Positions 18,029 through 31,078 of a DNA stretch of 64,000 nucleotides are shown piece after piece (positions within the stretch are counted from its first letter, which is position 1; the number at the start of each line of letters is the position of its first letter). The DNA lies in NCBI GenBank assembly GCA_021805205.1, contig JAJZFV010000043.1, forward strand, positions 62,001-126,000, given 5' to 3'. This stretch comes from Actinomycetes bacterium. GTDB taxonomy: Bacteria; Actinomycetota; Acidimicrobiia; Acidimicrobiales; Acidimicrobiaceae. The notes below the pieces were generated by a model that saw only the letters and a list, made by a program, of their open reading frames with translations, searched no databases and was not told the DNA's origin. A program made the translations under genes and the position numbers.

Positions 18029-20047
18029 TTGACAAAAAGAGTGGATCGAAACAATATCCGCCTCCCAACTGCACTACTTTCGGCTTATGAAGCAATTGCG
18101 TCCGTCTTTCTCTCTGCCACGTTAGACTCAGATTCGATTAAATTGAAGCGAAAACACTCCCGAGGATCAAAGTTCCTTACAAAGATTAACTTGACAGTCC
18201 TTGTGGTCTTGACCGCCATTATCTCGGTGTCTTCCTATATCGGTACCAGCCTGCTGCAAAGGTCAACATCTACCGCAGCAAAAAGAACTCAACACCTAGC
18301 AAAGATCTCGGTAGCTAAGTCGAGCACAACTACAACGAATTCAATAAATGGAAATAGCTTCCCTTCCCTTGCTCCGGGAAGTCTCTATTCGAGTGCCATA
18401 CAGCACGAAAATTCACTTCCTGGCACATCGCAATGGAAAATTTCAAATGCCGGGGCTCCCGGGGATATCGAAGGCTTTGCCTCATCGACGTATGCGCAAA
18501 TTGGTGATAACTTACGCCTTTTCGTCTCAACCATAGCCCCCACATTTCAAGTTCAAGCTTTCAGAATGGGTTGGTACCAAGGGAAACTTGGACGGCTGAT
18601 ATGGACCTCATCGACAATAAGTGGAGTGGTCCAACCAAGGTGCCTGATCACTTACACCACCAACACTACTTCTTGCACCAATTGGCAAGTTTCAACCGCG
18701 ATTAAAATCAATTCAACCTTTGTTCCAGGTGATTATCTCCTGAAACTCGTAGCCAGCACTGGTCCACAACAGTACATTCCACTTCAAGTTGTCGATCCGA
18801 ACTCCAATGCCGCGATCGTAGTTGATAATGCAGTTACGACTTGGCAGGCTTATAACGCCTACGGGGGTTATTCGCTCTACCACGGACCCGCCAACGCCAA
18901 TAGCGATCGCGCTACCAAGGTATCTTTCGATCGACCCTACTCATATTACTTTGGTTTGGGTTCAGGAGATTTCTTGGGCAATGAATTGCCCCTAGTGGCT
19001 CTCGTTGAGAAACTTGGCTTGAATGTAACGTACGTAAACTCGATCTACCTAGATCTTCATCCGAGTCTTACGTTAAACCACAACGCTTTTGTAAGTCTTG
19101 GACACGATGAGTACTACTCCCCTACGATGCGAAATGCGCTCCAAAATTCCATATCTCAGGGCCACAGCATTCTCTTTCTGGGAGCAAATGCGATCTTTAG
19201 AAGAATACGTCTCGAACCGAGTCCACTAGGTCCCGATCGAATTGAAGTCAACTACCGCATAGCCTCTCTAGACCCACTGTATGGCAAAAACAACGCTCTT
19301 GTCACAACTAACTGGCCATCTCCACCTGATCCCCAGGACGAAAGTTCACTAACGGGACTTCAATACCAGTGCAACCCAGTAAACGCCCCTATGGTCGTTG
19401 TCAACCCCAACTCATGGATATTCGCCGGGACTCTCGCACGCTTCGGAACCACAATTCCCCATTTGATAGGCTCCGAATTCGATCAATACCTTCCCTATGC
19501 ACCCCATCCTTCCAACGTAGAGATTCTTTCGCATTCGCCCCTGCTTTGCAGAAATGTACCCTACTTTTCTGATATGGTCTACTACTCGACACCAAGCGGA
19601 GGAGGCGTATTTTCTACCGGAACAAACTACTGGGTAGTCACTCTTCAAGGAGGATGCCCTCCATTTGCAGGAGAGTGTCCCGATCCTTTCACGGACCAGG
19701 TGACAACTAACGTTTTAGAGGCATTTGGGAGTGGGGGCGTCGGTTATTCGCATCCCTCGGTCCCCAATGCAAACCAAATCTTCTATCATCCACCCTTTGG
19801 ACCACTAACTCCTATTGCAACTACTACGACTTCATCTTCCACCACAACATCATCGACCACAAGTAGTACCACTTCAACGACTATGCCCGAGAAGGCTACA
19901 ACCACTTCGCAAGTTGTACCGCCCAATAGTTCCGTCACAACCACAGCGGCAACTACTACAACGTCGACGACGAACGTTGTTACTACAACCTCGGAGACAA
20001 TAACAGGAGCGACCCCGAGTGGCTCATCTCCTTCTCCTGTTGGCTAG
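18029..20047 (+). CDS. DMFA2_C-domain (N,N-dimethylformamidase beta-like) surface protein
   Basis: 672 residues: cytoplasmic N-terminus, one anchor near 52-74, Ser/Thr linker, a large domain (about 115-585) and a low-complexity Thr/Ser tail. The domain has the marks of the C-terminal module of N,N-dimethylformamidase large subunit: TTWQAYNAYGGYSLY, VSFDRPYSYY, VSLGHDEYYSP and LGANAIFRRIR. Such proteins are common as secreted actinobacterial proteins of unknown substrate; no small DMFase subunit is nearby, so the enzymatic name should not be taken literally. TTG start is uncertain; GTG at 18041 is an alternative. Confidence 0.82.
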   Translation: MTKRVDRNNIRLPTALLSAYEAIASVFLSATLDSDSIKLKRKHSRGSKFLTKINLTVLVVLTAIISVSSYIGTSLLQRSTSTAAKRTQHLAKISVAKSSTTTTNSINGNSFPSLAPGSLYSSAIQHENSLPGTSQWKISNAGAPGDIEGFASSTYAQIGDNLRLFVSTIAPTFQVQAFRMGWYQGKLGRLIWTSSTISGVVQPRCLITYTTNTTSCTNWQVSTAIKINSTFVPGDYLLKLVASTGPQQYIPLQVVDPNSNAAIVVDNAVTTWQAYNAYGGYSLYHGPANANSDRATKVSFDRPYSYYFGLGSGDFLGNELPLVALVEKLGLNVTYVNSIYLDLHPSLTLNHNAFVSLGHDEYYSPTMRNALQNSISQGHSILFLGANAIFRRIRLEPSPLGPDRIEVNYRIASLDPLYGKNNALVTTNWPSPPDPQDESSLTGLQYQCNPVNAPMVVVNPNSWIFAGTLARFGTTIPHLIGSEFDQYLPYAPHPSNVEILSHSPLLCRNVPYFSDMVYYSTPSGGGVFSTGTNYWVVTLQGGCPPFAGECPDPFTDQVTTNVLEAFGSGGVGYSHPSVPNANQIFYHPPFGPLTPIATTTTSSSTTTSSTTSSTTSTTMPEKATTTSQVVPPNSSVTTTAATTTTSTTNVVTTTSETITGATPSGSSPSPVG

Positions 20048-20074
20048 GTAATTTTGTACTCCCTAGAATGACTA

Positions 20075-20581
20075 TCATTCACCGAAACAGGGTTCGGGAC
20101 TTTGATCATCAGTCATTACCTTGTCCAGAAGTCTTTTGAGAGGCTTTGAGACTAGCTCGCCAAGTTCTTTGACCTCATCGTCATCCAATTGATCCAAGAA
20201 ATACTCCCTCACGCCAAGTAGGTGTGTCGGAGCTGCAACTCGAATCTTGTCAAGACCCTTTGCAGTTAGAACTGCATTCATTCCACGACGATCTGAAGGA
20301 CATGTCTTCTTTACTACCATGCCAGCGCGAATAAGGGAATCAAGTCGTCTCGTCAAACCAGATCGAGACACGTTGCACAGTTCGGCGAGAGAGGACATTC
20401 TCAAGGTGTAGTCGACAGCTTCACTCAAGTGAACGAGCACCTCATACTCGGCGAGGGTCAAGCCATGATTTGAGATAAGGTCACTATCGAGTTTAACTCC
20501 CAGCAACGCATTGAGGCGAAGGAACGATCTCCAGGTATTTGATTCACTAGCATTCAACCATCGCACTTTACTATCGTTCAT
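20075..20581 (-). CDS. MarR-family regulator, divergent to yceI
   Basis: 168 residues with a winged-helix core: MSSLAELCNVSRSGLTRRLD (helix-turn-helix) followed by LIRAGMVVKKTCPSDRRGMN (wing with the usual DxR). ATG at 20581 is chosen because it gives a normal MarR N-terminus; the frame is open 15 codons further but that would cover the operator. It is divergent from the YceI gene with a perfect palindrome between them, so autoregulation and control of yceI are likely. Confidence 0.88.
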   Translation of the reverse strand: MNDSKVRWLNASESNTWRSFLRLNALLGVKLDSDLISNHGLTLAEYEVLVHLSEAVDYTLRMSSLAELCNVSRSGLTRRLDSLIRAGMVVKKTCPSDRRGMNAVLTAKGLDKIRVAAPTHLLGVREYFLDQLDDDEVKELGELVSKPLKRLLDKVMTDDQSPEPCFGE

Positions 20582-20614
20582 ATAAACCACTTTATCTTGA
20601 ATTGACGGAATTAT

Positions 20615-20643
20615 TTGCGTACGCAACTATGTTTAAATATAAG
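20615..20643 (+). promoter_or_regulatory. yceI promoter overlapping a MarR-type operator
   Basis: Perfect 12-bp palindrome TTGCGTACGCAA at 20615-20626. Its left half doubles as a -35 element (TTGCGT), followed by a 17-base spacer and a -10 element TATAAG at 20638-20643. Binding here would block RNA polymerase at yceI; the repressor gene starts 34 bases away on the other strand. Confidence 0.75.
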
Positions 20644-20674
20644 CGTAACAGTACAACGTCGAAAGGTAAAAAAT

Positions 20675-21232
20675 ATGTCCACAACTACTGCATCAGCCCT
20701 AGGCCTAAAGACCGGTGTTTGGGAGATCGACCCAATTCACTCCACAGTTGAGTTCCTGGTAAAGCACTTGGTTGTATCCAAGGTACGTGGCCGTTTCAAC
20801 GAATTCTCCGGCTCAATCACGATTAACGAGAACCTTCTTGATTCCCAAGTACTTGCTACCATTGCAACCGCAAGTATCTTCACCAACCAAGAGGCACGCG
20901 ATAACCACCTTCGCTCAGGCGACTTTCTCGACGCTGAGTCATTCCCTACCATTACCTTTACCTCTACCTCAATCAATAGCGATGGCAGTGACTTCAAGCT
21001 CAATGGTGATCTAACCATGCACGGTGTAACCAAAGGTGTAACACTAGACCTTGAGTTCAATGGTGTTGCGGCTCATCCGATGGGCGGGGTTCGCGCAGGT
21101 TTTACCGCAACCGGAACCATCTCCAGGAAAGACTTCGGCATGGAATACAACGCACCGCTAGAGGCTGGTGGAGTTCTCCTATCCGACAAGATCACAATCG
21201 AACTAGAGATCCAAGCTACTCAGCCTGAATAA
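20675..21232 (+). CDS. YceI-family lipid-binding protein
   Basis: 185 residues forming the YceI lipocalin-like beta barrel that holds a polyisoprenoid chain. Seen: WEIDPIHSTVEFLVKHL at the start and the C-terminal RKDFGMEYN motif, with GDLTMHGVTKGV in between. No signal peptide, so cytoplasmic. ATG at 20675 with GAAAGG eight bases upstream; the longer frame from 20615 would include the promoter. It is typically stress- or MarR-controlled, in line with the operator here. Confidence 0.92.
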   Translation: MSTTTASALGLKTGVWEIDPIHSTVEFLVKHLVVSKVRGRFNEFSGSITINENLLDSQVLATIATASIFTNQEARDNHLRSGDFLDAESFPTITFTSTSINSDGSDFKLNGDLTMHGVTKGVTLDLEFNGVAAHPMGGVRAGFTATGTISRKDFGMEYNAPLEAGGVLLSDKITIELEIQATQPE

Positions 21233-21328
21233 TCCTAATTAGAACGAAACAACCGCTGCTAAAGGATTAGAACCTACTAGAGCAGTCAGAGTATCTAGTA
21301 CTTACGGAAAGTGAACTGCTCAAAGCAG

Positions 21329-21382
21329 AAAATTAGATGGGGTTTCTTTTGAAATATTTCAAAAGAAACCCCATCTAATTTT
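21329..21382. terminator. 54-bp perfect palindrome, bidirectional terminator
   Basis: Uninterrupted inverted repeat with 27-bp arms meeting between 21355 and 21356, with AAAATTAGATGGGG at the left end and its complement at the right. The arms end in A- and T-runs, so a terminator forms on either strand. It lies between the converging yceI and nfuA-like genes. Confidence 0.85.
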
Positions 21383-21456
21383 AGATGCACACTTTTAGCG
21401 TACCATTGAAACAACTGAAGAACCGCAACGGTACGTCCAATCGTGGGCCTTGCTTT

Positions 21457-22086
21457 CTACTTCTTAGATGCCTGGTAGAAGGGGTTAGTTCCCGAAAGAT
21501 GGTCGGTAACGTCCACCACCTTCGTGATGGACGGAACGGCTTCTTTAATTGCAACTTCGATACCTTGCGACAAAGTTACGGCAGCGAGACCACAACCCTG
21601 ACATCCACCCGAGAGTCGTACAAATGCCTTATCATCGGTCACTCCAACCAAATCAGCCCTTCCACCGTGGCTTGCGATCGCGGGATTGATTTCATCTTGC
21701 AACAGTTCGATTATGGTTCGAGCAATAGCTGAGTCAAGAGTTGCATCTTCAAGACCAGCTGGGGCCTCACTCATAGAAGATGGGGTGTTGGGGTTGGTAA
21801 TCACAAGTCCACCATCGGCCTCGGGCAAATCTAGAGTTGAGCCAGACAACTGATCGATACTTGCCTTTGGAACTACAACTGTAATTCCATCCTCAGAGGC
21901 TACGTAATCTGCTATCTCAGCGTCGAACTTCGACTGAAAGTAGACATCATAAGTAAACGCGTTACCATTCGTTCCGGAGACTTCAATCCAAAGAGCAATC
22001 TCCGATGCATCTTCCTCACCTGCGGCTACTTCTGCCACAAACTTTGCAGCACTGGGAGTGACCGATATTACCTTGTCCACGTCCAC
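21457..22086 (-). CDS. NfuA-type Fe-S cluster carrier
   Basis: 209 residues: an N-terminal HesB/A-type domain that has lost its cysteines (residues 1-105) and a C-terminal NifU-like domain with C162-x2-C165 in SGGCQGCGLAAVTL. Two subunits together hold a [4Fe-4S] cluster that is passed to client enzymes. GTG start at 22086 (a second GTG two codons later has GAGGTGG in front and may be the real start). It is divergent from the ATP-grasp/radical SAM operon, where an Fe-S carrier would be useful (inference). Confidence 0.9.
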   Translation of the reverse strand: MDVDKVISVTPSAAKFVAEVAAGEEDASEIALWIEVSGTNGNAFTYDVYFQSKFDAEIADYVASEDGITVVVPKASIDQLSGSTLDLPEADGGLVITNPNTPSSMSEAPAGLEDATLDSAIARTIIELLQDEINPAIASHGGRADLVGVTDDKAFVRLSGGCQGCGLAAVTLSQGIEVAIKEAVPSITKVVDVTDHLSGTNPFYQASKK

Positions 22087-22224
22087 CTCAAAAATCTCAT
22101 TGTCTTCACCGTTAAGCCTAATCGCATAATTGTATAAGCGCCAAGATCACTTTAAACTTCCTGATCGGTGTCGTTTAGAATGGAAGTTGCAACAGCAGAA
22201 GCAGATCATAGTCCGAGGTCATCA

Positions 22225-23466
22225 ATGAAAATACTTCTCATAGTTCCTGAGAACTCCTATCGCATCAAAGAATTCTTGGACGCAGCCCTCACTCTTGGAC
22301 TAGAGGTTTACATAGCTACCGATTCAACATTTGCTCCGCCCGATCTAAACGATCGAGTTTTCGATTCAATAGAGTTTTGCAACCCTGAATCTGCAGGGAA
22401 CACGGTCAATGCGATCGTCGAAAGCGTTGGAATTGACACCGTTGTAGCAATAGACGAAGGTGGTATCGAAATACTTGAATGGGCTCGAGCTCTGAAAAAT
22501 GGCCTCGTCGAGCCACCGGAGCACTCTTTAGCCCTAAGAGACAAACTTCTGTTGCGTTCGGTACTAAAAGACGTGGTACCTCAGCCAAATGTTTTCGCGA
22601 GAGACTTCGGATCCATTCAATTCGGTGCTGGAATTATTGTAAAACCATCAAAGGGAAGCGCATCGATAGGGGTTACCCGGGTGAGCACTATAGACGAGCT
22701 CAAATCGGCAGTTGCTTTCATCGATACCCACCTAAAACAGCACGGTGTAGCAATAATAGAAGAGTACATCGAAGGAACCGAGCATGCGTTCGAAGGGGTA
22801 GTAGTAAACGGTAGCTTGGTCGAGCTGGCCATTTTCGACAAACCTCACCCGCTCACCGGACCTTACTTTGCAGAGACGATCTACATAACACCTACAAGCC
22901 TTGACGAATACCTCAGAAAAAGAGTTCTTCAATGCGTTGAAGCCGCAATAAACGCCCTTGAAATAGAAAACGGACCTATTCACGTCGAAGTAAGGGTGGC
23001 CAACGATGGCACAGTATTCATAATTGACTTTGCAAACCGATCGATAGGAGGGCGATGCTCCTCCGCCCTTTCATTTATTGGAGATCGCACGTTGGAGGTA
23101 GTGCTCCTTGAAGCAATCACAGAAGGTGATGCCTCGCACGCACACCGAGAAAATCAATATTCTGGGGTGTACATGATTCCGACTTCCGAAAGCGGAGTCT
23201 TGCATAACGTACAAGGAATCGAAGAGGCTAGAGAGATACCTTTCGTCACGGATGTAGTTATCGACGCCAAGATTGGGAAAAGGTACGAAACTCTCCCCTC
23301 TGAGGGAAATTACATGGGTTTTATCTACGCCAAGGCGCCAACGAGGTCACTTTGCATTGAGGCACTCGAAAAGAGCTTCAATGAAATCGTCTTCGACATC
23401 GCCGTTGACAAAGACCATATTAAACAGCTCAACCGTGTCGACCACTTCTCCGCCGTTGAGCGCTAG
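22225..23466 (+). CDS. ATP-grasp ligase of a radical SAM cluster
   Basis: 413 residues. ATP-grasp features: GIIVKPSKGSASIGV (ATP-binding Lys strand), IIEEYIEGTEHAFEG (adenine/hinge), and HVEVRVANDGTVFIIDFANRSIGG with the metal-binding E and N. The N-terminal pre-ATP-grasp domain begins MKILLIVPENSYR, which fixes the start at 22225 (CGAGGT five bases upstream) rather than at 22168. ATP-grasp enzymes join a carboxylate to an amine or thiol through an acyl phosphate. The substrate is unknown. The radical SAM gene follows directly. Confidence 0.85.
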   Translation: MKILLIVPENSYRIKEFLDAALTLGLEVYIATDSTFAPPDLNDRVFDSIEFCNPESAGNTVNAIVESVGIDTVVAIDEGGIEILEWARALKNGLVEPPEHSLALRDKLLLRSVLKDVVPQPNVFARDFGSIQFGAGIIVKPSKGSASIGVTRVSTIDELKSAVAFIDTHLKQHGVAIIEEYIEGTEHAFEGVVVNGSLVELAIFDKPHPLTGPYFAETIYITPTSLDEYLRKRVLQCVEAAINALEIENGPIHVEVRVANDGTVFIIDFANRSIGGRCSSALSFIGDRTLEVVLLEAITEGDASHAHRENQYSGVYMIPTSESGVLHNVQGIEEAREIPFVTDVVIDAKIGKRYETLPSEGNYMGFIYAKAPTRSLCIEALEKSFNEIVFDIAVDKDHIKQLNRVDHFSAVER

Positions 23467-23542
23467 ATTAAAATAGCAAATGCGACGTTCGCCTTCAGGC
23501 CTTTCATTCGCAAAATCTCCAATTCTTCAAGGAAGAACAGCT

Positions 23543-24979
23543 TTGACCAACGCACTTCTAATCTCGCTATACGACTTGGGCCATCAACCCTATGAGATAC
23601 TGCAGCTCGATGCAGCCCTAGTTCAAGCAGGAATACCCTCATCCATTGTGGATCTATCGATTACCGAAGAAGCAGAGTTACACAGCTACGATCTGCAGGA
23701 AACTTACGTCGTAATCTCAGTTCCGATGCACACAGCAGCGCGACTTGCGCTTTCGGTTCTAGATGGGCTTAGCGGATGGCAAAATAACCCAAAGATAATT
23801 CTGATGGGCCATTATGCAGAAGCGCTTGCGACCCTCCCCATTCCCGTTCCGATCGCAATGTTGGCCTCGGGCGAGTCTGTCGATTCAATCGTTGACTTTA
23901 TCTCTATCGGTAACGATGCCTCACTACCGATAGAGAGCAACTCCGCGATAATCAAGGTCAACTCAACAAAAGCCAGTAGTCGAATCAAGCTGATCAACTC
24001 CCCCCTACATCGAGATAAACTGCCTTCCCTATCCCGCTATACAAGCTACATAGATGGGGAAAAAATGGAGCTTGCTGGCTACGTTGAAGCTAGCCGCGGC
24101 TGCCTTCACCTTTGCACCCACTGTCCCGTAGCTGCAACTTACGGCGGACGAATTCGGATCAACTCGGTTGGGTCGGTAATTAGGGAGATAGAGAATCTTT
24201 ACGAATCTGGCGCCCGTCATATCACATTTGGCGACCCCGACTTCTTTAACGCTCCAATCCACTCCATAAAGACGCTAGAGCAATCGAATACAATCTTTCC
24301 TGACCTTACTTTCGATGCGACAATCAAAGTCTCACATATCCTCAAGTACAGAGACCTAATCCCAAAACTCTCCGAAAATAACGTCACCTTTATTGTTAGT
24401 GCCTTTGAACATACATCACTCGAGGTGTTGGATGCGCTCGAAAAGGGACATAATACCGAGGACATGGTCGAGGCGTTACGGATAGTTCGAGAGAACGGCT
24501 TCGAAATAAGGCCCTCTCTGCTTCCATTTACCCCCTGGACGACACTCGATTCGATGGTAGAACTTTTAGATTTTGTAGTAGACCAAGACCTTATTGATGC
24601 AATCGATCCCGTTATGTACTCAATTCGGCTACTGGTACCTTCAACATCACTGACATACAAGAGGTTTCCATACCTCTTTAAAGACGGCCGAGACGGAGGA
24701 TTGAACCTCGAGTGGTCGAGTGCAATTACGGAGCTCGATAATCTCCAACTTGAAATCTCAAACATCGCCGAAAATGCAGGCGACGCCAACAACCTAGAAA
24801 TCTTCTCAAAGATCTACGCAGCGGTTGCAGCTACCGCCGGAAAAGAATCTCGCGATGGCTTCTTCAGCCTCAACCGAAATGTCCCCAGACTCACAGAGAG
24901 CTGGTACTGTTGTGCCGAGCCTACAAATTCTATGACAACCGCAGTGGCAACTGAAACATCTCGAGGCTCCTGCTGCTAA
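23543..24979 (+). CDS. CCAEP-tail radical SAM protein
   Basis: 478 residues from TTG at 23543 (AAGGAAG seven bases upstream; family-like N-terminus MTNALLISLYDLGHQP). An ATG at 23480 is in frame but lacks a ribosome-binding site. Order: B12-binding-like or Rossmann-type N-terminal domain, then a radical SAM barrel with C-x3-C-x2-C at C187, C191, C194 (RGCLHLCTHC). Near the C-terminus WYCCAEP has vicinal cysteines C456-C457, and the protein ends RGSCC. From memory this matches the group named CUAEP/CCAEP-tail radical SAM (seleno)proteins, in which one Cys may be selenocysteine; here both codons are TGT (24908-24913). Its reaction is not known. Confidence 0.85.
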   Translation: MTNALLISLYDLGHQPYEILQLDAALVQAGIPSSIVDLSITEEAELHSYDLQETYVVISVPMHTAARLALSVLDGLSGWQNNPKIILMGHYAEALATLPIPVPIAMLASGESVDSIVDFISIGNDASLPIESNSAIIKVNSTKASSRIKLINSPLHRDKLPSLSRYTSYIDGEKMELAGYVEASRGCLHLCTHCPVAATYGGRIRINSVGSVIREIENLYESGARHITFGDPDFFNAPIHSIKTLEQSNTIFPDLTFDATIKVSHILKYRDLIPKLSENNVTFIVSAFEHTSLEVLDALEKGHNTEDMVEALRIVRENGFEIRPSLLPFTPWTTLDSMVELLDFVVDQDLIDAIDPVMYSIRLLVPSTSLTYKRFPYLFKDGRDGGLNLEWSSAITELDNLQLEISNIAENAGDANNLEIFSKIYAAVAATAGKESRDGFFSLNRNVPRLTESWYCCAEPTNSMTTAVATETSRGSCC

Positions 24980-27033
24980 TGAGCGCTTCCCTAAGCCACC
25001 TCACCCAGGAACAACACGATGCAGTAACATCGCCTGCGAAGTTGTTGTGTATCGTTGCGGGGCCAGGAAGTGGCAAAACCACAGTGCTAACTCATCGAAT
25101 CGCCTACATGATGGACAATGGCGATGTGCCAGGTAGAAACTTCGCAGTAATAACTTTTACCAATGCCGCTGCTGAACAGCTAAAAAGCCGCTTAGCCGCG
25201 CTCAGCAGCAGCGATATCCCCTGGGTAGGAACGTTTCATTCCTTTGCAATGTCGATCCTTAGGCGCTTTTACGAGACGATTAACAAGCCTCTTCCTCGAC
25301 TGATGACTTCGAGATTTCGCCTAATAGAGAAGGCCGCGACCTCGATTTCCAGCTTGAAAGAGTTGAAGGAAAACGAGATCAAGTGGAATTCAACGATCTC
25401 AAATACCGTACGGGAGATTGAGGTCGCTAAGTCGAAGGGGGTGCGGTGGTATGCGTTTGAACAGTGGCGCTCAACGCAACCAGAGACCGCAGCGATCCCT
25501 ATTTCAACGTTGAGCCAAATCTACAAGAATTACGAAGACCTAAAGGCTTCCGAGGGGAAGATCGACTTCGATGATCTCATCTTTGAAGCGTTCGATCTTT
25601 TGGCTGAAAGAAATGACTTTGCGGCAACAATTAGATGGTACTACCGCTCACTCTTTGTAGACGAATACCAAGATGTGAACAAGCCTCAGGTGGACCTAAT
25701 TAGGGCTTTGCTAACCGAGGGGCACCGCTTGACTGTCGTTGGCGATCCTAAACAATCGATCTACACTTGGAACGGAGCTTCTCCCAACTTTATAAACCAC
25801 TTCGAGTACGACTTCCCCGGCGCCCAATTTTTACAACTCACCAATAACTTCAGGTCAACGCCTGAGATTGTCAACGTTGCTAACAAAATTGCAGACTCAT
25901 TCTCAAAGGACGTTCAGGGGAGATTCAAACCACACATAATCTCAAATCGAGAGAGTTGGGTAATTCCCCGCTTCAATGAATTTGAAAATGCAGTCGACGA
26001 GGCCGAAACTATCGCTACAGAGATAGCACGGTTCATCTCCCATGGCGAACGGCCAGATGAAATTGCAATAATCGCGCGAATAAACTCCCTATTGCCCCTA
26101 TACGCTGGATCTCTTTCAAAGGCAGGCGTGAATCATCAGATTATCGGTTCGGAGAACATCTCTTCTTCACCGGTCGTTAAGGCTGCCGTAAATCGCATAA
26201 CCGCAACGGTCGGCTTGCGTGGTTCACTTCCTGACGCTCTGTCAGAGATCGACAAGATCACCGAATCCATCGAAGGTTCGGCAAATGAGGGCGACTCTTA
26301 CAATCAGCTTGCCCTCGAGTTTGTTCGATCATTTATAAATGAGAGCATTCGATCCGGCTTCAAGGGGGACTTTGGATCCTTAATAAGTTACTTCAAAGTT
26401 CGTACAACCGAATTCCAACTCATGAAGAAGGCCGGCGTAACCCTGATAACCGCACACAAATCTAAAGGACTCGAATGGGATCGAGTCTATGTAGTCGGCG
26501 TCGAGCAAGGGCTCATTCCTCATGCGAAGTCAACCAGCGCTGAATCTTTTGAAGAAGAGCGCCGTCTCCTGTATGTAGCGGTTACTCGAGCGAGAAGCGA
26601 ACTATCTATCTCGTACGCCAAGCGACGCGGAAACAGCGATCAACTTAGGTACGCCTCCGACTTCTTGATTGGCCTAGAGCCCCACCTAAAAGAGGGGCTA
26701 CACAAGCGCCTATCACCAGAAGAAGCTGCCGCTGAGATAAGAAGGTCAAGAGATCTCCTAAATGGCTCAACGCCCACCGCCTCCGACCCTGAACGCGCCC
26801 TTTTGATTTTAGAAACATGGAAGCGCGAGATAACTCCATCCATTGGCGTCCGTTCACTACGTCTTACCGACGCCTTGCTCGAACTCGTCGCTAAAGCTCT
26901 CCCACTCAGCGTACACGAGCTAAAGCTCCTTGATGGCGGAGGAGACTTAGCGCCAGAGATCGCTAGGGAGATGGTAAAGATTTGCCGCCGGATCAGACTG
27001 ATGGAAGGCAGGGGTAATAACCATCTCGGTTGA
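24979..27033 (+). CDS. UvrD/PcrA-like SF1A DNA helicase
   Basis: 684 residues. All SF1 motifs are present: I GPGSGKTT (28-35), Ia TFTNAAAEQLKSRL, II VDEYQDVNKP, III VVGDPKQSIYTWNG, IV LTNNFRSTPEIVN, V LITAHKSKGLEWD and VI LLYVAVTRAR. The C-terminus (ALLELVAKALPLSVHELKLL) resembles a partial HRDC-like domain. Its ATG overlaps the radical SAM stop (TAATG), so the three genes form one transcript. Some UvrD-like proteins also carry a RecB-type nuclease; this one does not. Confidence 0.9.
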   Translation: MSASLSHLTQEQHDAVTSPAKLLCIVAGPGSGKTTVLTHRIAYMMDNGDVPGRNFAVITFTNAAAEQLKSRLAALSSSDIPWVGTFHSFAMSILRRFYETINKPLPRLMTSRFRLIEKAATSISSLKELKENEIKWNSTISNTVREIEVAKSKGVRWYAFEQWRSTQPETAAIPISTLSQIYKNYEDLKASEGKIDFDDLIFEAFDLLAERNDFAATIRWYYRSLFVDEYQDVNKPQVDLIRALLTEGHRLTVVGDPKQSIYTWNGASPNFINHFEYDFPGAQFLQLTNNFRSTPEIVNVANKIADSFSKDVQGRFKPHIISNRESWVIPRFNEFENAVDEAETIATEIARFISHGERPDEIAIIARINSLLPLYAGSLSKAGVNHQIIGSENISSSPVVKAAVNRITATVGLRGSLPDALSEIDKITESIEGSANEGDSYNQLALEFVRSFINESIRSGFKGDFGSLISYFKVRTTEFQLMKKAGVTLITAHKSKGLEWDRVYVVGVEQGLIPHAKSTSAESFEEERRLLYVAVTRARSELSISYAKRRGNSDQLRYASDFLIGLEPHLKEGLHKRLSPEEAAAEIRRSRDLLNGSTPTASDPERALLILETWKREITPSIGVRSLRLTDALLELVAKALPLSVHELKLLDGGGDLAPEIAREMVKICRRIRLMEGRGNNHLG

Positions 27034-27040
27034 TAAAAAA

Positions 27041-30000
27041 TCATCCGAATCCGACACCATAGCCAAATGGTAACCCCACTTTTACTCCGGAATTCGACGA
27101 CATATCATCAGAACCAATAGTCGCCTCAATTCTTCGAACGATCCAGTCAACAAATGGTCTTCCAGACTCACGCCTCTCGTTGACACCCCCATCCTCGTGG
27201 GAGAGGGCATGTAGCGCAAAGGCTTCATCGTCACCGAATGCTATTTCATAGAGGTAGGCCGATACCGGACAGCTCGGTAACGATGAAAGCTCGTAGATCA
27301 CTTCTCCATACATGTACGCCAAATGCCACGCCAGTGCTGAAAGGTCAGAGGTAACCCTATTTGGAATGGGAGGCACCCACGATCCCTGTGACCAGGTGGG
27401 AATGGCAGAGGCTTTCATTGGCTTAGCTATTCCATAACCTTGACCATAGACCCCACCCAAAATAGTGACAGCTTCAATGATCGATCTATTTTCAAGGCCT
27501 TCAACCACCACTCGGCGTTTCAAATCTTGACCGATCTGGGTAAGCGTATGGACCAAACTTAAAGTAGTAAATGGGTCTTGGTTCGCATGTCTAACTATCG
27601 ACTGATCTACCTTTATTACATCAAATGGAAGACTGGCCAGACGCATCAAACTCGAATAACCAGAGCCTAAATCATCTATTGCCAGGTGGATTCCCTTTCC
27701 AACAAGCGTCGTAACAATTTCCTGTGTTGATTCGGAACTTAAATCTTCAGTTTCCACCAACTCTAGAGTCAATCGAGAAGGATTGACTTCGAAACGATCA
27801 AGCGCCTCCACTATCCAGTCGACTGACTCCTTCTTCGAGATCGTCATCGGTGATATGTTTATAGTAAGATCCACAAAGAGTCCCTCATCGTCCCACTGTC
27901 TTAGGGCTTGAAGACTTTTACTAAGACCGTAGCGAAATAATAGATCTATTTCGATTTCACGAAGGACCGGCAGAAATACACCTGGTGAGACTAGTCCCCA
28001 CTCCGTCGTCTCTAAACGGGCTAGCGCTTCTACTTTGGCAAGTCGGCCGGTTCGCAAGTCAACAATCGGCTGCATGTACATCTCAAAGTCGCCATCGCTG
28101 ATCATGGTTCGCATCTTTATCGCATCTGCGAGTGAGCCACTTGTGAGATTACGCCTTGGTGCGAGGACCAATCTCTCCCATCGCGACTTTAGGGCAGATG
28201 CAAAGGCGTTCATCCACCCACTTGCAAACTGGGATGGAAACGAGCCCTGAATCAAAAGAACAAAGTCGACACTGCTATCGCGAGTAATCGGAATGGCCAA
28301 CATCGATGCGCACCAATCATCACCGAGATCCCGTCTCCAGAGTTCACACCTAGGATCGTTTACAAAGTCATCTACCCGTGTGATCGAAAAGCTCCTCCAA
28401 GCCTCTTCTATCACACCACTCGAAAGTCCTTCTTGTGGAACTAATGGATCGATCTCCTCGCCACTTAAAAGGCAGTCAAGATCACGAGACCTGTCTCCGG
28501 AAGATGCAAGGGGAACGAAACGGCCCCCAACCTCCGGATATAGCAATTCAGCACCCAAAATTCCAGGAAGAAGGCCGACTAAATCGATCTCCTCTTTTGC
28601 GATCGCCGACCACTCCTCGTAGCTATCAGGAAATGGCCGACCAACTGTAACCTCAAAGGCGCGCACCACTTGACTCATTGCGTTGAGGTGTTCACTTAGA
28701 GCCTTTTCTACACGAGTTGTAATGGCCTCAAGCACCAAATACCTATCGACAGAGTCAGGAAGATCGGTCTCCAAGCCTTCAATCAGCCTGCGACGTAAAG
28801 TGGAGGCGACTTGAGAAATCCATTTTGCATTAAGTCCAATAAGCCCTGAAGCTTCGCCCTCTTCTCTAGATCTAATCAAAACTGATTCGAACTCAACATT
28901 GGGAGTGAACATGTATCTAAAAAATTCAAAGAACTGCTTCGTGACAAATTGACGGAAGGTCTCTGAAAGATTGGAGATACCGGAGTAAATATCTGAAACC
29001 TCTTCTAAATCGCGATAGAAACCCGCCTCAAATATTTCGGAGTTCTTAGCGATCCAGCGATAAATCTCAAGTATAACGAGTTCATAGCGACCATCTGGTT
29101 CGTCTTCGGAGCTCAAAGCTGGCTCATTGCTAACCCGGTTAGCCATCTCCCACCATCGCCCACTAGTATTCCGCCTTCGCTTCGCCCTAAAAAGCGCTAG
29201 GTCCGCTCTTCTAAGCCAGGCATCCGAGTCGCTGTCTGGTTCAACCACAACAGCTACGCCCATCGTCATGCCAATCTCGATGCCTCGCACTCCGGCGACA
29301 TCAAATGGGCTCTCGCAGATACAGTGGAGTCGTTCAAAGATATTATCTAAATTTTTTACCAGGTTTCCACCCTCGACATCCTCGAGGATAACCACGAACT
29401 CGTCGCCACCGATCCGTCCAGCAAAATCGGTCGGACGCATAGATTCGCGCAACCGCTGAGCAAACTTTTTGAGGAGTTCATCGCCTACACCATGGCCGTA
29501 CTTCTCATTTACCGGTTTGAAGTAGTCAAGGTCTATCACACCTATGACAACGCTTCGCTGACTGCGTCGCCCGCGGGCAAGTGCCGCATCAAAGTGAAGC
29601 TTTATTGCTCGCCGATTTGGAAGATCTGTAAGAGGATCAAAGTTCGCTTGTCTTCGCAGCTCCTCTTCCAATTGAAATTGTTTTGTAACTTCAATCGACG
29701 TCCAGACAATAACTGGGTGTTCAGGATCCCCACCATCGACCCGTCGACCATGCATGTCCACATAGATCATCTCACCATTTCTGCGTCTGATTCGAAGATT
29801 TGAGATGCTACCGGAGCCAACCCGCAACACGCTCTCGGCCAAAAGTGCCATGCGTTCGTTTTCGTCAGCCACCGAATAGAAATGTGTAGTGCTACGCCCT
29901 ATTAATTCGGATCGATCCTCGTACCCTAAAAGTTCTAAAAAACTCTGATTCGCGTCAATAATTACCCTCTCTGGATATTGCACTAGGTCAATACCGGCCA

Positions 30001-31078
30001 CAGTATTCGAAAGAAGGGCATCTCGCATAACAGAGAGCTCGTCGATTGCCTTCTGTTGCTCGATTCTCTCAGTGACATCGACCTGAGTCCATACGATCCT
30101 GTCGATACCATCGGAGCTGGGGAGTCGAGTTCCAGAGATATCGAGATAGATCAATGATCCATCTTTGCGAATAAATGGGACCTCTCTGGCTGTACCGCTG
30201 CCATCATTGAGGATCTTCTCAGAAAGTCGCAGTACCCTATCTGCCGAAGCAGGGTCCGCATAAAGAGTAACGGTTTGCGATCCCACCAATTCTGATTCAC
30301 CGCTGACTCCAGCGATCTGCGCTAGAGCGCGGTTGACGCGCTCCATAATTCGCTCCGGATAACGAGTCACGTTGACTCCCACCGTCAATGACTCGAGCAA
30401 CGTTCCATTAAATTCATTCGCAAGCGACTCTCGACGCCTTAGCTCTAATCTATCTAAACCTCTCGAGATCTCGTCGCAAAGCTCCTCTAGCAATGTGGTA
30501 AGGACCGGATCAAACTTCTCCATCGACGAGGTGTAGAAGGTTATAACTGCCCAAGGCTCGCCATCGCGATAGATGGGAAAATTGGCACTTGACCCTATTC
30601 CAAACTTTTTGGCATGCTCTCTCCAGGGAGTCAACCGCGAATCGTCTTTGAAACTGGCTATAACCGGCCGCGCTTCACGCCAACATCGAGCAGTCGGCCC
30701 ATTTCCTTCTGGAGAAGCTGGATCTGTAGTGATTCGAATTCCATCAAGATAGTTAATAGCTTCACCAGCAGCTGCGACCAAGTAAAAGTCACCGCTGGGA
30801 GAAGGACGACTTATCCATGCGAGCACCACGCCCGTCTCTTCAATGGCGGAATTGCAAATCGCCTGAAGCAGCGTATTGTCGTCGGAGACCGACATAAACA
30901 TTTGATGGACCCGAGATGTAAGGGAATAGAAGCGCGAAAGTCTCTCATAGTTAAGCAGCGAACGGCGTTGCCGAGCCAGAAATCGTAGCGTCACCAAAAT
31001 CGCGATCAACGCAATCATTACACCGGAGACACCAAAGACGTTACCGACGTCTAAAGCGCCATGAACAATTAGCTCCAA
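27041..31078 (-). CDS. Membrane GAF-PAS-PAS-GGDEF-GAF-EAL c-di-GMP protein with CZB-like C-terminus
   Basis: 1345 residues. Anchor 17-35, GAF 50-210, PAS 220-340, PAS 348-468, GGDEF 475-640 with intact GGDEF (557-561) and an inhibitory site RxxD at 548-551, a helical region of unknown type (about 655-850), a GAF-like domain (about 855-1005) and EAL. The EAL catalytic set is seen: VEALARLE, NISP, LVETED, AIDDLGSGYS, IKVD, VVEGLE and GQGYGIAKP, so both synthesis and breakdown are possible. The end has H1252-x2-Y, C1270 and H1290-x3-H1294, like a shortened chemoreceptor zinc-binding domain. TTG start with AAGGAGGTGG upstream. Confidence 0.9.
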   Translation of the reverse strand: MELIVHGALDVGNVFGVSGVMIALIAILVTLRFLARQRRSLLNYERLSRFYSLTSRVHQMFMSVSDDNTLLQAICNSAIEETGVVLAWISRPSPSGDFYLVAAAGEAINYLDGIRITTDPASPEGNGPTARCWREARPVIASFKDDSRLTPWREHAKKFGIGSSANFPIYRDGEPWAVITFYTSSMEKFDPVLTTLLEELCDEISRGLDRLELRRRESLANEFNGTLLESLTVGVNVTRYPERIMERVNRALAQIAGVSGESELVGSQTVTLYADPASADRVLRLSEKILNDGSGTAREVPFIRKDGSLIYLDISGTRLPSSDGIDRIVWTQVDVTERIEQQKAIDELSVMRDALLSNTVAGIDLVQYPERVIIDANQSFLELLGYEDRSELIGRSTTHFYSVADENERMALLAESVLRVGSGSISNLRIRRRNGEMIYVDMHGRRVDGGDPEHPVIVWTSIEVTKQFQLEEELRRQANFDPLTDLPNRRAIKLHFDAALARGRRSQRSVVIGVIDLDYFKPVNEKYGHGVGDELLKKFAQRLRESMRPTDFAGRIGGDEFVVILEDVEGGNLVKNLDNIFERLHCICESPFDVAGVRGIEIGMTMGVAVVVEPDSDSDAWLRRADLALFRAKRRRNTSGRWWEMANRVSNEPALSSEDEPDGRYELVILEIYRWIAKNSEIFEAGFYRDLEEVSDIYSGISNLSETFRQFVTKQFFEFFRYMFTPNVEFESVLIRSREEGEASGLIGLNAKWISQVASTLRRRLIEGLETDLPDSVDRYLVLEAITTRVEKALSEHLNAMSQVVRAFEVTVGRPFPDSYEEWSAIAKEEIDLVGLLPGILGAELLYPEVGGRFVPLASSGDRSRDLDCLLSGEEIDPLVPQEGLSSGVIEEAWRSFSITRVDDFVNDPRCELWRRDLGDDWCASMLAIPITRDSSVDFVLLIQGSFPSQFASGWMNAFASALKSRWERLVLAPRRNLTSGSLADAIKMRTMISDGDFEMYMQPIVDLRTGRLAKVEALARLETTEWGLVSPGVFLPVLREIEIDLLFRYGLSKSLQALRQWDDEGLFVDLTINISPMTISKKESVDWIVEALDRFEVNPSRLTLELVETEDLSSESTQEIVTTLVGKGIHLAIDDLGSGYSSLMRLASLPFDVIKVDQSIVRHANQDPFTTLSLVHTLTQIGQDLKRRVVVEGLENRSIIEAVTILGGVYGQGYGIAKPMKASAIPTWSQGSWVPPIPNRVTSDLSALAWHLAYMYGEVIYELSSLPSCPVSAYLYEIAFGDDEAFALHALSHEDGGVNERRESGRPFVDWIVRRIEATIGSDDMSSNSGVKVGLPFGYGVGFG

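What the first reader, a model, noticed from the sequence alone, without database searches (positions are those of the whole stretch)
22225..27033. ATP-grasp / radical SAM / helicase operon of unknown function
Three closely spaced genes (76 bases, then an overlapping TAATG). ATP-grasp plus radical SAM is the signature of modified peptides, cofactors or metalloid/selenium chemistry, but no precursor peptide, transporter or known scaffold gene is visible. A DNA helicase as third member is unexpected and might point to nucleic-acid-linked chemistry or only to shared promoters. An Fe-S carrier gene is divergent next door.
Basis: partly seen in the sequence, partly recalled or inferred. Interest (0 to 1): 0.8.

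Follow-up and report, generated by a model that had tools for sequence, protein, structure and literature searches.

The report
Conserved ligase–radical-SAM pathway, product unknown
Two enzymes, one that joins amino acids and one that does radical chemistry and resembles the enzyme that puts arsenic into a natural antibiotic, travel together through many groups of bacteria and probably make a small molecule not yet described, while the DNA helicase next to them is a local hanger-on.

Summary
The ATP-grasp/radical SAM pair is a functional unit; the helicase is not part of it. In 296 genomes of the class (inferred Acidimicrobiia), the radical SAM family is in 102 and the ATP-grasp in 129; 99 have both. 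Outside the class the pair is linked, in several arrangements, in Chloroflexota, Nitrospirota, Planctomycetota, Rokubacteria, Proteobacteria and others: 51 of 80 loci; of 25 genomes searched out of the 29 without linkage, 20 hold a clear copy elsewhere. An Fe-S carrier (NfuA/NifU) is the third recurrent partner. The radical SAM protein is a sister of ArsL (arsinothricin synthesis): 34 invariant columns, plus a C-terminal Cys-Cys whose second residue is often selenocysteine (25 of 93 and 32 of 80 loci). The helicase is adjacent in 5 of 94 class loci, all of the window's family, and in 7 of 80 named loci. No RiPP precursor was seen; arsenic genes show no association. Most likely an amino-acid ligase product is modified by a SAM-derived radical at a soft element or thiol held by the tail. 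The chemistry is inferred; the substrate is unknown.

The parts
22225..23466 (+). ATP-grasp ligase, L-amino-acid-ligase type (possible longer start GTG 22168)
   Evidence: PF13535 99 bits and PF18603 LAL_C2 53 bits; best solved relative L-amino acid ligase BL00235, 3vot, E 8.9e-25, with the family profile E 5.9e-70
23056..23058 (+). codon of Cys278, family-specific cysteine in the R-x-I-G-G-x-C motif of the ligase
   Evidence: C in 47 of 49 sequences (48 named loci plus window), 20 of 20 unlinked class loci, 40 of 41 linked class loci (one gap); absent in 3 of 3 ArsL-cluster ATP-grasps; invariant in the 23 rows of A4
23543..24979 (+). CCAEP-tail radical SAM protein, ArsL sister (alternative start ATG 23480)
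   Evidence: NF040546 421 bits, NF040542 ArsL 224 bits; start from ribosome-site-like stretch and homologues; AlphaFold mean pLDDT 89
24101..24124 (+). Cx3Cx2C radical SAM cluster motif (C208, C212, C215 in the numbering from ATG 23480)
   Evidence: invariant in A1, A2 and A3
24896..24922 (+). C-terminal tail ESWYCCAEP; vicinal Cys477-Cys478 at 24908-24913
   Evidence: W-[FYW]-C-[CU] found in 93 of 93 class loci not cut by a contig end and 80 of 80 named loci, without choosing them by the motif; CC aligned by MAFFT with the CC of RCCLKC in ArsL
21457..22086 (-). NfuA-type Fe-S carrier, divergent
   Evidence: PF01106 74 bits; same arrangement NfuA (divergent), ATP-grasp, radical SAM in 35 of 94 class loci; beside the ATP-grasp in 16 of 20 loci where the radical SAM is elsewhere or absent
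22087..22224 (.). 138-base divergent intergenic region (probable promoters of both directions)
   Evidence: coordinates; one weak promoter-like match on the - strand, no excess over shuffles in the scanned region
24979..27033 (+). UvrD/PcrA-like helicase, lineage-specific neighbour, judged not part of the pathway
   Evidence: PF00580 210 bits; adjacency in 5 of 94 class loci (all of the window's family) and 7 of 80 named loci; homologues in 31 of 31 relatives searched

Best explanation
The ATP-grasp and the radical SAM enzyme are two steps of one small-molecule pathway, served by an Fe-S carrier (NfuA). Shown by computation: the two genes co-occur and are often linked across phyla; Fe-S/iron-handling genes cluster with them; the radical SAM protein is a sister of ArsL with vicinal cysteines at the C-terminus; the helicase is a passenger. 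Inferred: the ATP-grasp couples two amino-acid-like substrates with ATP, as its L-amino-acid-ligase relatives do. The radical SAM enzyme then modifies that product by breaking SAM in the ArsL manner and transferring its 3-amino-3-carboxypropyl (or another SAM-derived) radical to a soft atom (selenium, arsenic, sulfur or a metal-bound thiol) that the Cys-Cys/Cys-Sec tail binds and delivers. The order, ligase first and radical SAM second, is inferred from nesting: genomes with the radical SAM almost always have the ligase, while about 27 genomes of the class have the ligase alone.
For: Co-occurrence 99 of 102 in 296 genomes, Fisher p 5e-47 (genomes are not independent, so p is too small). Linkage in 41 of 94 class loci and 51 of 80 named loci, with different orders and strands. 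Of 29 named loci without a linked ligase, 25 genomes were searched and 20 hold a clear ligase (best piece 306-584 bits, one of them in several frames; other ATP-grasps score at most 188). NfuA/NifU in 41, YggX in 17, DUF169 in 15 of 80 named loci (families). ArsL sister: 34 invariant columns among 10 CUAEP-type and 4 ArsL proteins, C477-C478 included with Sec read as Cys; ArsL proteins form a separate branch. The Cys/Sec swap at the tail needs 19 changes on the tree, at least 10 forced; 20 of 22 class loci with an in-frame TGA at the motif lie in genomes with SelB. Five of six opened ArsL-type plasmid loci carry an ATP-grasp nearby. Nesting.
Against: The ArsL chemistry is carried over by homology at 26-29% identity; motifs around the active site differ between the families. 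The tail match to ArsL rests on the multiple alignment only: pairwise BLASTP stops before the tail and the ArsL profile match ends at residue 422. The ATP-grasps of ArsL clusters are not the same subfamily: median 65 bits to the CUAEP-linked ligases, which score a median of 301 among themselves. Arsenic genes show no association with the radical SAM: ArsM 27 of 102 against 51 of 194, p 1.0; Acr3 20 of 102 against 47 of 194, p 0.39; neither was found in the window's genome, 89% complete. Three of 25 tested genomes have no ligase hit and two more only a fragment or a weak hit. Thirteen of 80 named loci show none of the partner genes. The ligase also occurs without the radical SAM. No coordinates were available to see whether the tail reaches the active site.
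Confidence: 0.45

Rival explanations
1. It is an arsenic pathway: the radical SAM binds As(III) with its Cys-Cys/Cys-Sec tail, makes hydroxyarsinothricin or a relative, and the ligase turns it into a dipeptide (detoxification or Trojan-horse antibiotic).
For: Sister of ArsL with aligned CC tail. ArsL-type loci on Priestia, Alicyclobacillus, Pantoea and Klebsiella plasmids also carry an ATP-grasp, with ArsM, ArsR, aquaporin or ArsN1 in various sets. Arsenic gene homologues near a few CUAEP loci: arsenite permease in L181, L192, L195; ArsM and ArsR in L179.
Against: No association with ArsM or Acr3 in 296 genomes; 63 of 102 radical SAM genomes have neither at the thresholds used. No arsenic gene among the eight genes scanned in and beside the window's operon. 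The ligase occurs without the radical SAM.
Confidence: 0.2
2. The radical SAM is a sulfur- or selenium-inserting enzyme that sacrifices an Fe-S cluster, as lipoyl synthase does, and NfuA reloads it; the tail cysteines hold that auxiliary cluster or the incoming sulfur/selenium.
For: NfuA/NifU or YggX near 58 of 80 named loci, and NfuA or YggX beside 7 of 20 clear unlinked ligases; NfuA beside the ligase in 16 of 20 class loci without a linked radical SAM. Reloading of lipoyl synthase by NfuA is recalled knowledge.
Against: Only five cysteines are invariant (three of the SAM cluster and two of the tail), few for an auxiliary cluster. ArsL is thought likely to have a single cluster (PMC8552651, passages).
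Confidence: 0.15
3. The tail is itself the substrate (a built-in precursor peptide) that the radical SAM or ligase modifies.
For: The tail is present in 173 of 173 loci checked behind a variable linker; no separate precursor gene in the window's gaps.
Against: Residues after AEP vary freely in length, so there is no fixed C-terminus for a ligase to extend; ArsL has a comparable tail and its proposed product is a free amino acid.
Confidence: 0.05
4. The three genes are a chance neighbourhood or share only a promoter.
For: Fits the helicase.
Against: Does not fit the ligase and radical SAM: they co-occur even where unlinked.
Confidence: 0.02

Closest known systems
ArsL, arsinothricin radical SAM (NF040542, RCCLKC tail)
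   Same: Aligned over most of the length, Cx3Cx2C, 34 invariant columns, vicinal C-terminal cysteines, ATP-grasp neighbour in five of six opened plasmid loci
   Different: Tail is E-x-W-[FY]-C-[CU]-[AS]-E-P and not RCCLKC; Sec common; no ars genes beside it; score 224 against a cut-off of 450
CUAEP/CCAEP-tail radical SAM (seleno)protein, NF040546 (the model names it but gives no function)
   Same: Best family hit, residues 26-484; tail motif
   Different: Window protein scores 421 bits, under the curated 500; 50 of 296 class genomes reach it
L-amino-acid ligases BL00235 (3vot) and BacD
   Same: ATP-grasp plus LAL_C2 domain; nearest solved structures by sequence
   Different: Family-specific Cys278, partner radical SAM and NfuA; BacD equivalog cut-off not reached, 39 against 850
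AprD4 / OxsB / TsrM, radical SAM enzymes with a cobalamin-type N-terminal domain
   Same: Closest solved folds to the model, E 1.9e-16 to 1.4e-15
   Different: 13-15% identity in those matches; different chemistry; absence of an ArsL-like tail there is recalled, not checked
NfuA/NifU Fe-S carriers
   Same: NifU domain
   Different: Here tied to the ligase and radical SAM; NfuA equivalog cut-off not reached (96.6 against 269)

Membership tests
NF040546 CUAEP/CCAEP radical SAM | score above the curated cut-off of 500 bits | tested here: not met
   421.1 bits
NF040546 CUAEP/CCAEP radical SAM | C-terminal C-[CU]-A-E-P tail | tested here: met
   WYCCAEP at 24902-24922
NF040546 CUAEP/CCAEP radical SAM | Cx3Cx2C radical SAM motif | tested here: met
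   C208, C212, C215 invariant
ArsL (NF040542) | score above 450 bits | tested here: not met
   223.8 bits; four plasmid ArsL/RCCLKC proteins score 641-705
ArsL (NF040542) | RCCLKC C-terminus | tested here: not met
   only the CC pair is shared in the alignment
ArsL (NF040542) | 3-amino-3-carboxypropyl transfer from SAM to As(III) | not testable with these tools
   needs an enzyme assay
arsinothricin gene cluster | arsenic genes in the neighbourhood (arsM, arsR, export) | tested here: not met
   none among the eight genes scanned from 18029 to 31078; own genome has no ArsM or Acr3 match at the thresholds used
L-amino-acid ligase type ATP-grasp | ATP-grasp core plus LAL_C2 domain over gathering score | tested here: met
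   PF13535 99.4 against 27, PF18603 53.4 against 29.4
L-amino-acid ligase type ATP-grasp | dipeptide-forming activity | not testable with these tools
   needs an assay
RiPP biosynthesis | precursor peptide gene nearby | tested here: inconclusive
   no convincing peptide among the ORFs of 20 aa or more in two gaps of the window; short ORFs of relatives were not compared
PcrA/UvrD helicase | UvrD N and C domains; equivalog cut-off | tested here: inconclusive
   domains met; pcrA 287 against 911, uvrD 259 against 1144
selenoprotein form | in-frame TGA at the tail with SelB in the genome | tested here: not met
   window has TGT (Cys); best SelB match of G000 E 3.5e-60, not among the over-cut-off matches listed

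The most novel reading that the evidence does not exclude
A widespread, unrecognised metabolite or cofactor of bacteria is made by an amino-acid ligase and a radical SAM enzyme that attaches a SAM-derived aminocarboxypropyl group to selenium, arsenic or a metal-bound sulfur presented by a Cys-Sec (or Cys-Cys) tail. It is kept even by streamlined 1-Mb genomes, and its Fe-S supply comes from genes of the same module.
Probability: 0.3. Interest if true: 0.85.

Novelty: new variant of a known kind. Interest (0 to 1): 0.62.

Why it matters
The radical SAM family has a name but no function that I could find in print (CUAEP, CCAEP, RCCLKC and NF040546 occur in none of the 5.39 million papers searched). 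Finding its near-constant partner (the ligase), the ligase's signature cysteine and the Fe-S partners turns an orphan selenoprotein family into a testable two-enzyme pathway. It also gives a second context, apparently without arsenic genes, in which to study how ArsL-type enzymes choose their SAM cleavage and their substrate.

Tried and rejected
Rejected: helicase as pathway member (adjacent in 5 of 94 class loci, all of one family, and 7 of 80 named loci; 94 of the 105 matches were fetched). The further genomes of the window's family seen were not tested for adjacency. Rejected: ATP-grasp of the window as orthologue of the ATP-grasps in ArsL plasmid clusters (median 65 bits against 301 within the family; the best plasmid hit is a Pantoea ATP-grasp beside an EamA transporter, 111 bits). 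Not supported: arsenic methylation or efflux as genomic companions. Looked for and not found: precursor ORFs in gaps of the window; promoter or terminator signals above shuffles; a paper holding both arsinothricin and ATP-grasp or radical SAM, ATP-grasp and NfuA. The distance from the tail to the cluster could not be measured because the model is not given as coordinates. Neighbour clusters are full of shadow ORFs and were read only after a codon-position filter. In one search five class loci (L051, L054, L056, L057, L125) were read in a wrong frame and L063 is cut by a contig end; the tail was recounted.
Full report
Observation. Three genes lie head to tail at 22225-27033. The ATP-grasp protein (413 aa from ATG 22225) has ATP-grasp_4 and the L-amino-acid ligase C-terminal domain. 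The radical SAM protein is best matched by NF040546, 'CUAEP/CCAEP-tail radical SAM (seleno)protein' (421 bits, curated cut-off 500), and next by NF040542, ArsL of arsinothricin synthesis (224 bits, residues 26-422). The helicase has the UvrD N and C domains. A NifU-domain Fe-S carrier is divergent at 21457-22086.

The pair is real. NF040546 was found in 102 of 296 genomes of the class at E <= 1e-40 and the window's ATP-grasp in 129 of 296 at E <= 1e-15. Ninety-nine genomes have both; three have only the radical SAM, all assemblies in 210-660 contigs; 30 have only the ATP-grasp, one of them (G079) by a weak match. The Fisher p of 5e-47 ignores kinship and is too small. Of the 30, 29 were searched again for the radical SAM at a relaxed threshold: two showed fragments, 27 nothing; 20 of the 29 are at least 90% complete, and one of those 20 had a fragment. 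So the ligase does exist without the radical SAM. Linkage: I fetched 94 of the 105 matches; an ATP-grasp lies in 41 of the 94 loci, 35 of them in the exact order NfuA (divergent), ATP-grasp, radical SAM.

Beyond the class. An ATP-grasp homologue lies in 51 of 80 loci: upstream same strand in 23, downstream same strand in 19, downstream opposite strand in 9. Record titles of such loci include Nitrospira, Manganitrophaceae, Thermogemmatispora, Dehalococcoidia, Planctomycetota, Rokubacteria, Rhodospirillales, Bryobacterales and Ignavibacteriales. Of the 29 loci without a linked ATP-grasp I searched the genomes of 25: 20 have a clear orthologue elsewhere (best piece 306 bits or more; the one in G687 is broken over several frames), one a contig-end fragment, one a weak hit, three none. 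The orthologues share a cysteine in R-x-I-G-G-x-C (Cys278): 47 of 49, 20 of 20 and 40 of 41 sequences in three sets; the three ATP-grasps of ArsL clusters lack it.

Iron-sulfur partners. In the 80 named loci a NfuA/NifU gene occurs in 41, the Fe(II)-trafficking gene yggX in 17, a DUF169 gene in 15 and an IscS-like gene in 2; 58 have NfuA or YggX, and 13 have none of these nor a linked ATP-grasp (families named). In several loci these genes sit between radical SAM and ATP-grasp. In 20 class loci where the ATP-grasp is unlinked or the radical SAM absent, NfuA is beside it in 16. In the 20 clear unlinked ATP-grasp loci of other groups (L264-L283, flanks of 1.5 kb or less) NfuA or YggX is beside it in 7. 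No background rate was measured; with a few such genes per genome I would expect about 1% by chance (inference).

The ArsL link. Ten CUAEP-type proteins and four plasmid ArsL/RCCLKC proteins share 34 invariant columns, among them the SAM cluster cysteines and, with Sec read as Cys, a vicinal pair at the C-terminus. The tail part of that match depends on the multiple alignment; pairwise BLASTP (30% identity over 421 columns) does not reach it. ArsL proteins form one branch in a FastTree tree made without the tail. In PMC8552651 (passages seen) ArsL is proposed to add the aminocarboxypropyl group of SAM; PMC12159101 (passages seen) cites a 2024 JACS paper for the radical transfer to arsenic (the JACS paper itself was not seen). 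I opened 7 of the 17 plasmid hits (L152-L158): one is CUAEP-type (Thermomicrobium, no ATP-grasp nearby); of six ArsL/RCCLKC-type loci five carry an ATP-grasp nearby and the Pseudomonas amygdali arsQ-arsL-arsM locus does not. So amino-acid ligases have joined both sister families, apparently independently.

The tail. Without choosing by the motif, W-[FYW]-C-[CU] follows the radical SAM match in 93 of 93 class loci not cut by a contig end (25 with Sec) and in 80 of 80 named loci (32 with Sec). In a non-redundant set of 137 proteins picked by the motif, 59 have in-frame TGA at the second cysteine. The swap needs 19 changes on the tree, at least 10 forced by well-supported branches. Of 22 class loci with TGA at the motif, 20 are in genomes with SelB over cut-off (for one, G233, I judged from its E-value because its bits were not printed); the two misses are genomes in about 270 and 940 contigs. 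The window's genome has Cys and no over-cut-off SelB. AlphaFold places the tail with pLDDT about 81-88, but distances could not be read. A 2026 review (PMC13188914, passages) says that Sec in some selenoproteins linked to metal or metalloid resistance may act as a metal ligand. A similar Cys-Cys delivery tail in mercuric reductase is recalled, not tested.

What it is not. ArsM occurs in 27 of 102 radical SAM genomes and 51 of 194 others; Acr3 in 20 of 102 and 47 of 194. So these arsenic genes do not travel with the family in this class. The helicase is next to the radical SAM in 5 of 94 class loci, which are the five genomes of the window's family in the class sample, and in seven of 80 named loci, although 31 of 31 relatives searched have UvrD-like homologues.

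Mechanism. I commit to a two-step pathway: ligase product first, then radical modification at a soft atom held by the tail, with NfuA feeding the Fe-S cluster. The pairing is shown; the order is inferred from nesting; the SAM cleavage mode is inferred from ArsL; the element is open. Closest solved folds are AprD4, OxsB and TsrM, consistent with a cobalamin-type N-terminal domain. In a 57-sequence alignment 52 columns are invariant (its tail columns are partly so by selection), so the family is under strong constraint.

Noticed in passing
L047:10349-11194 (+), and the same cluster in L043, L045, L046, L048, L107: A gene family of about 230-280 aa with a GCCSYGAHF stretch (in L047) sits downstream of the radical SAM in six loci of the order; the L047 member has no Pfam match.
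   Followed up: partly
L091-L095, L097, L129-L131: In nine loci of 31-34% G+C genomes of about 1 Mb (probably marine streamlined ones, my guess) the radical SAM is flanked by a flavin-reductase-like gene and a luciferase-like oxidoreductase (the latter my reading); in the two such genomes checked (L239, L240) the ATP-grasp lies elsewhere beside NfuA.
   Followed up: partly
L152:7932-9368 (+): The Thermomicrobium roseum gene is annotated as ending at WFC; the next codon is TGA followed by AEP, so the record very likely misses a selenocysteine and the true C-terminus.
   Followed up: yes
L192:5642-5986 and 16 other named loci: yggX (Fe(II) trafficking) near the radical SAM, often just upstream, in Chloroflexota and some others, with a formyltransferase-like gene close by in 11 of these loci.
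   Followed up: partly
window 27041-31078 (-): Large GAF-PAS-GGDEF-EAL protein of 1345 aa convergent with the helicase.
   Followed up: no
window 18029-20047 (+): Protein with an N,N-dimethylformamidase beta-subunit-like domain and a Ser/Thr-rich C-terminus; a homologue sits upstream of the same genes in L047.
   Followed up: no
L239, L240, L241, L243, L250, L256-L258: A thiamine-pyrophosphokinase-like gene (my reading of the sequence, not scanned) is near the unlinked ATP-grasp in 8 of 20 loci.
   Followed up: no
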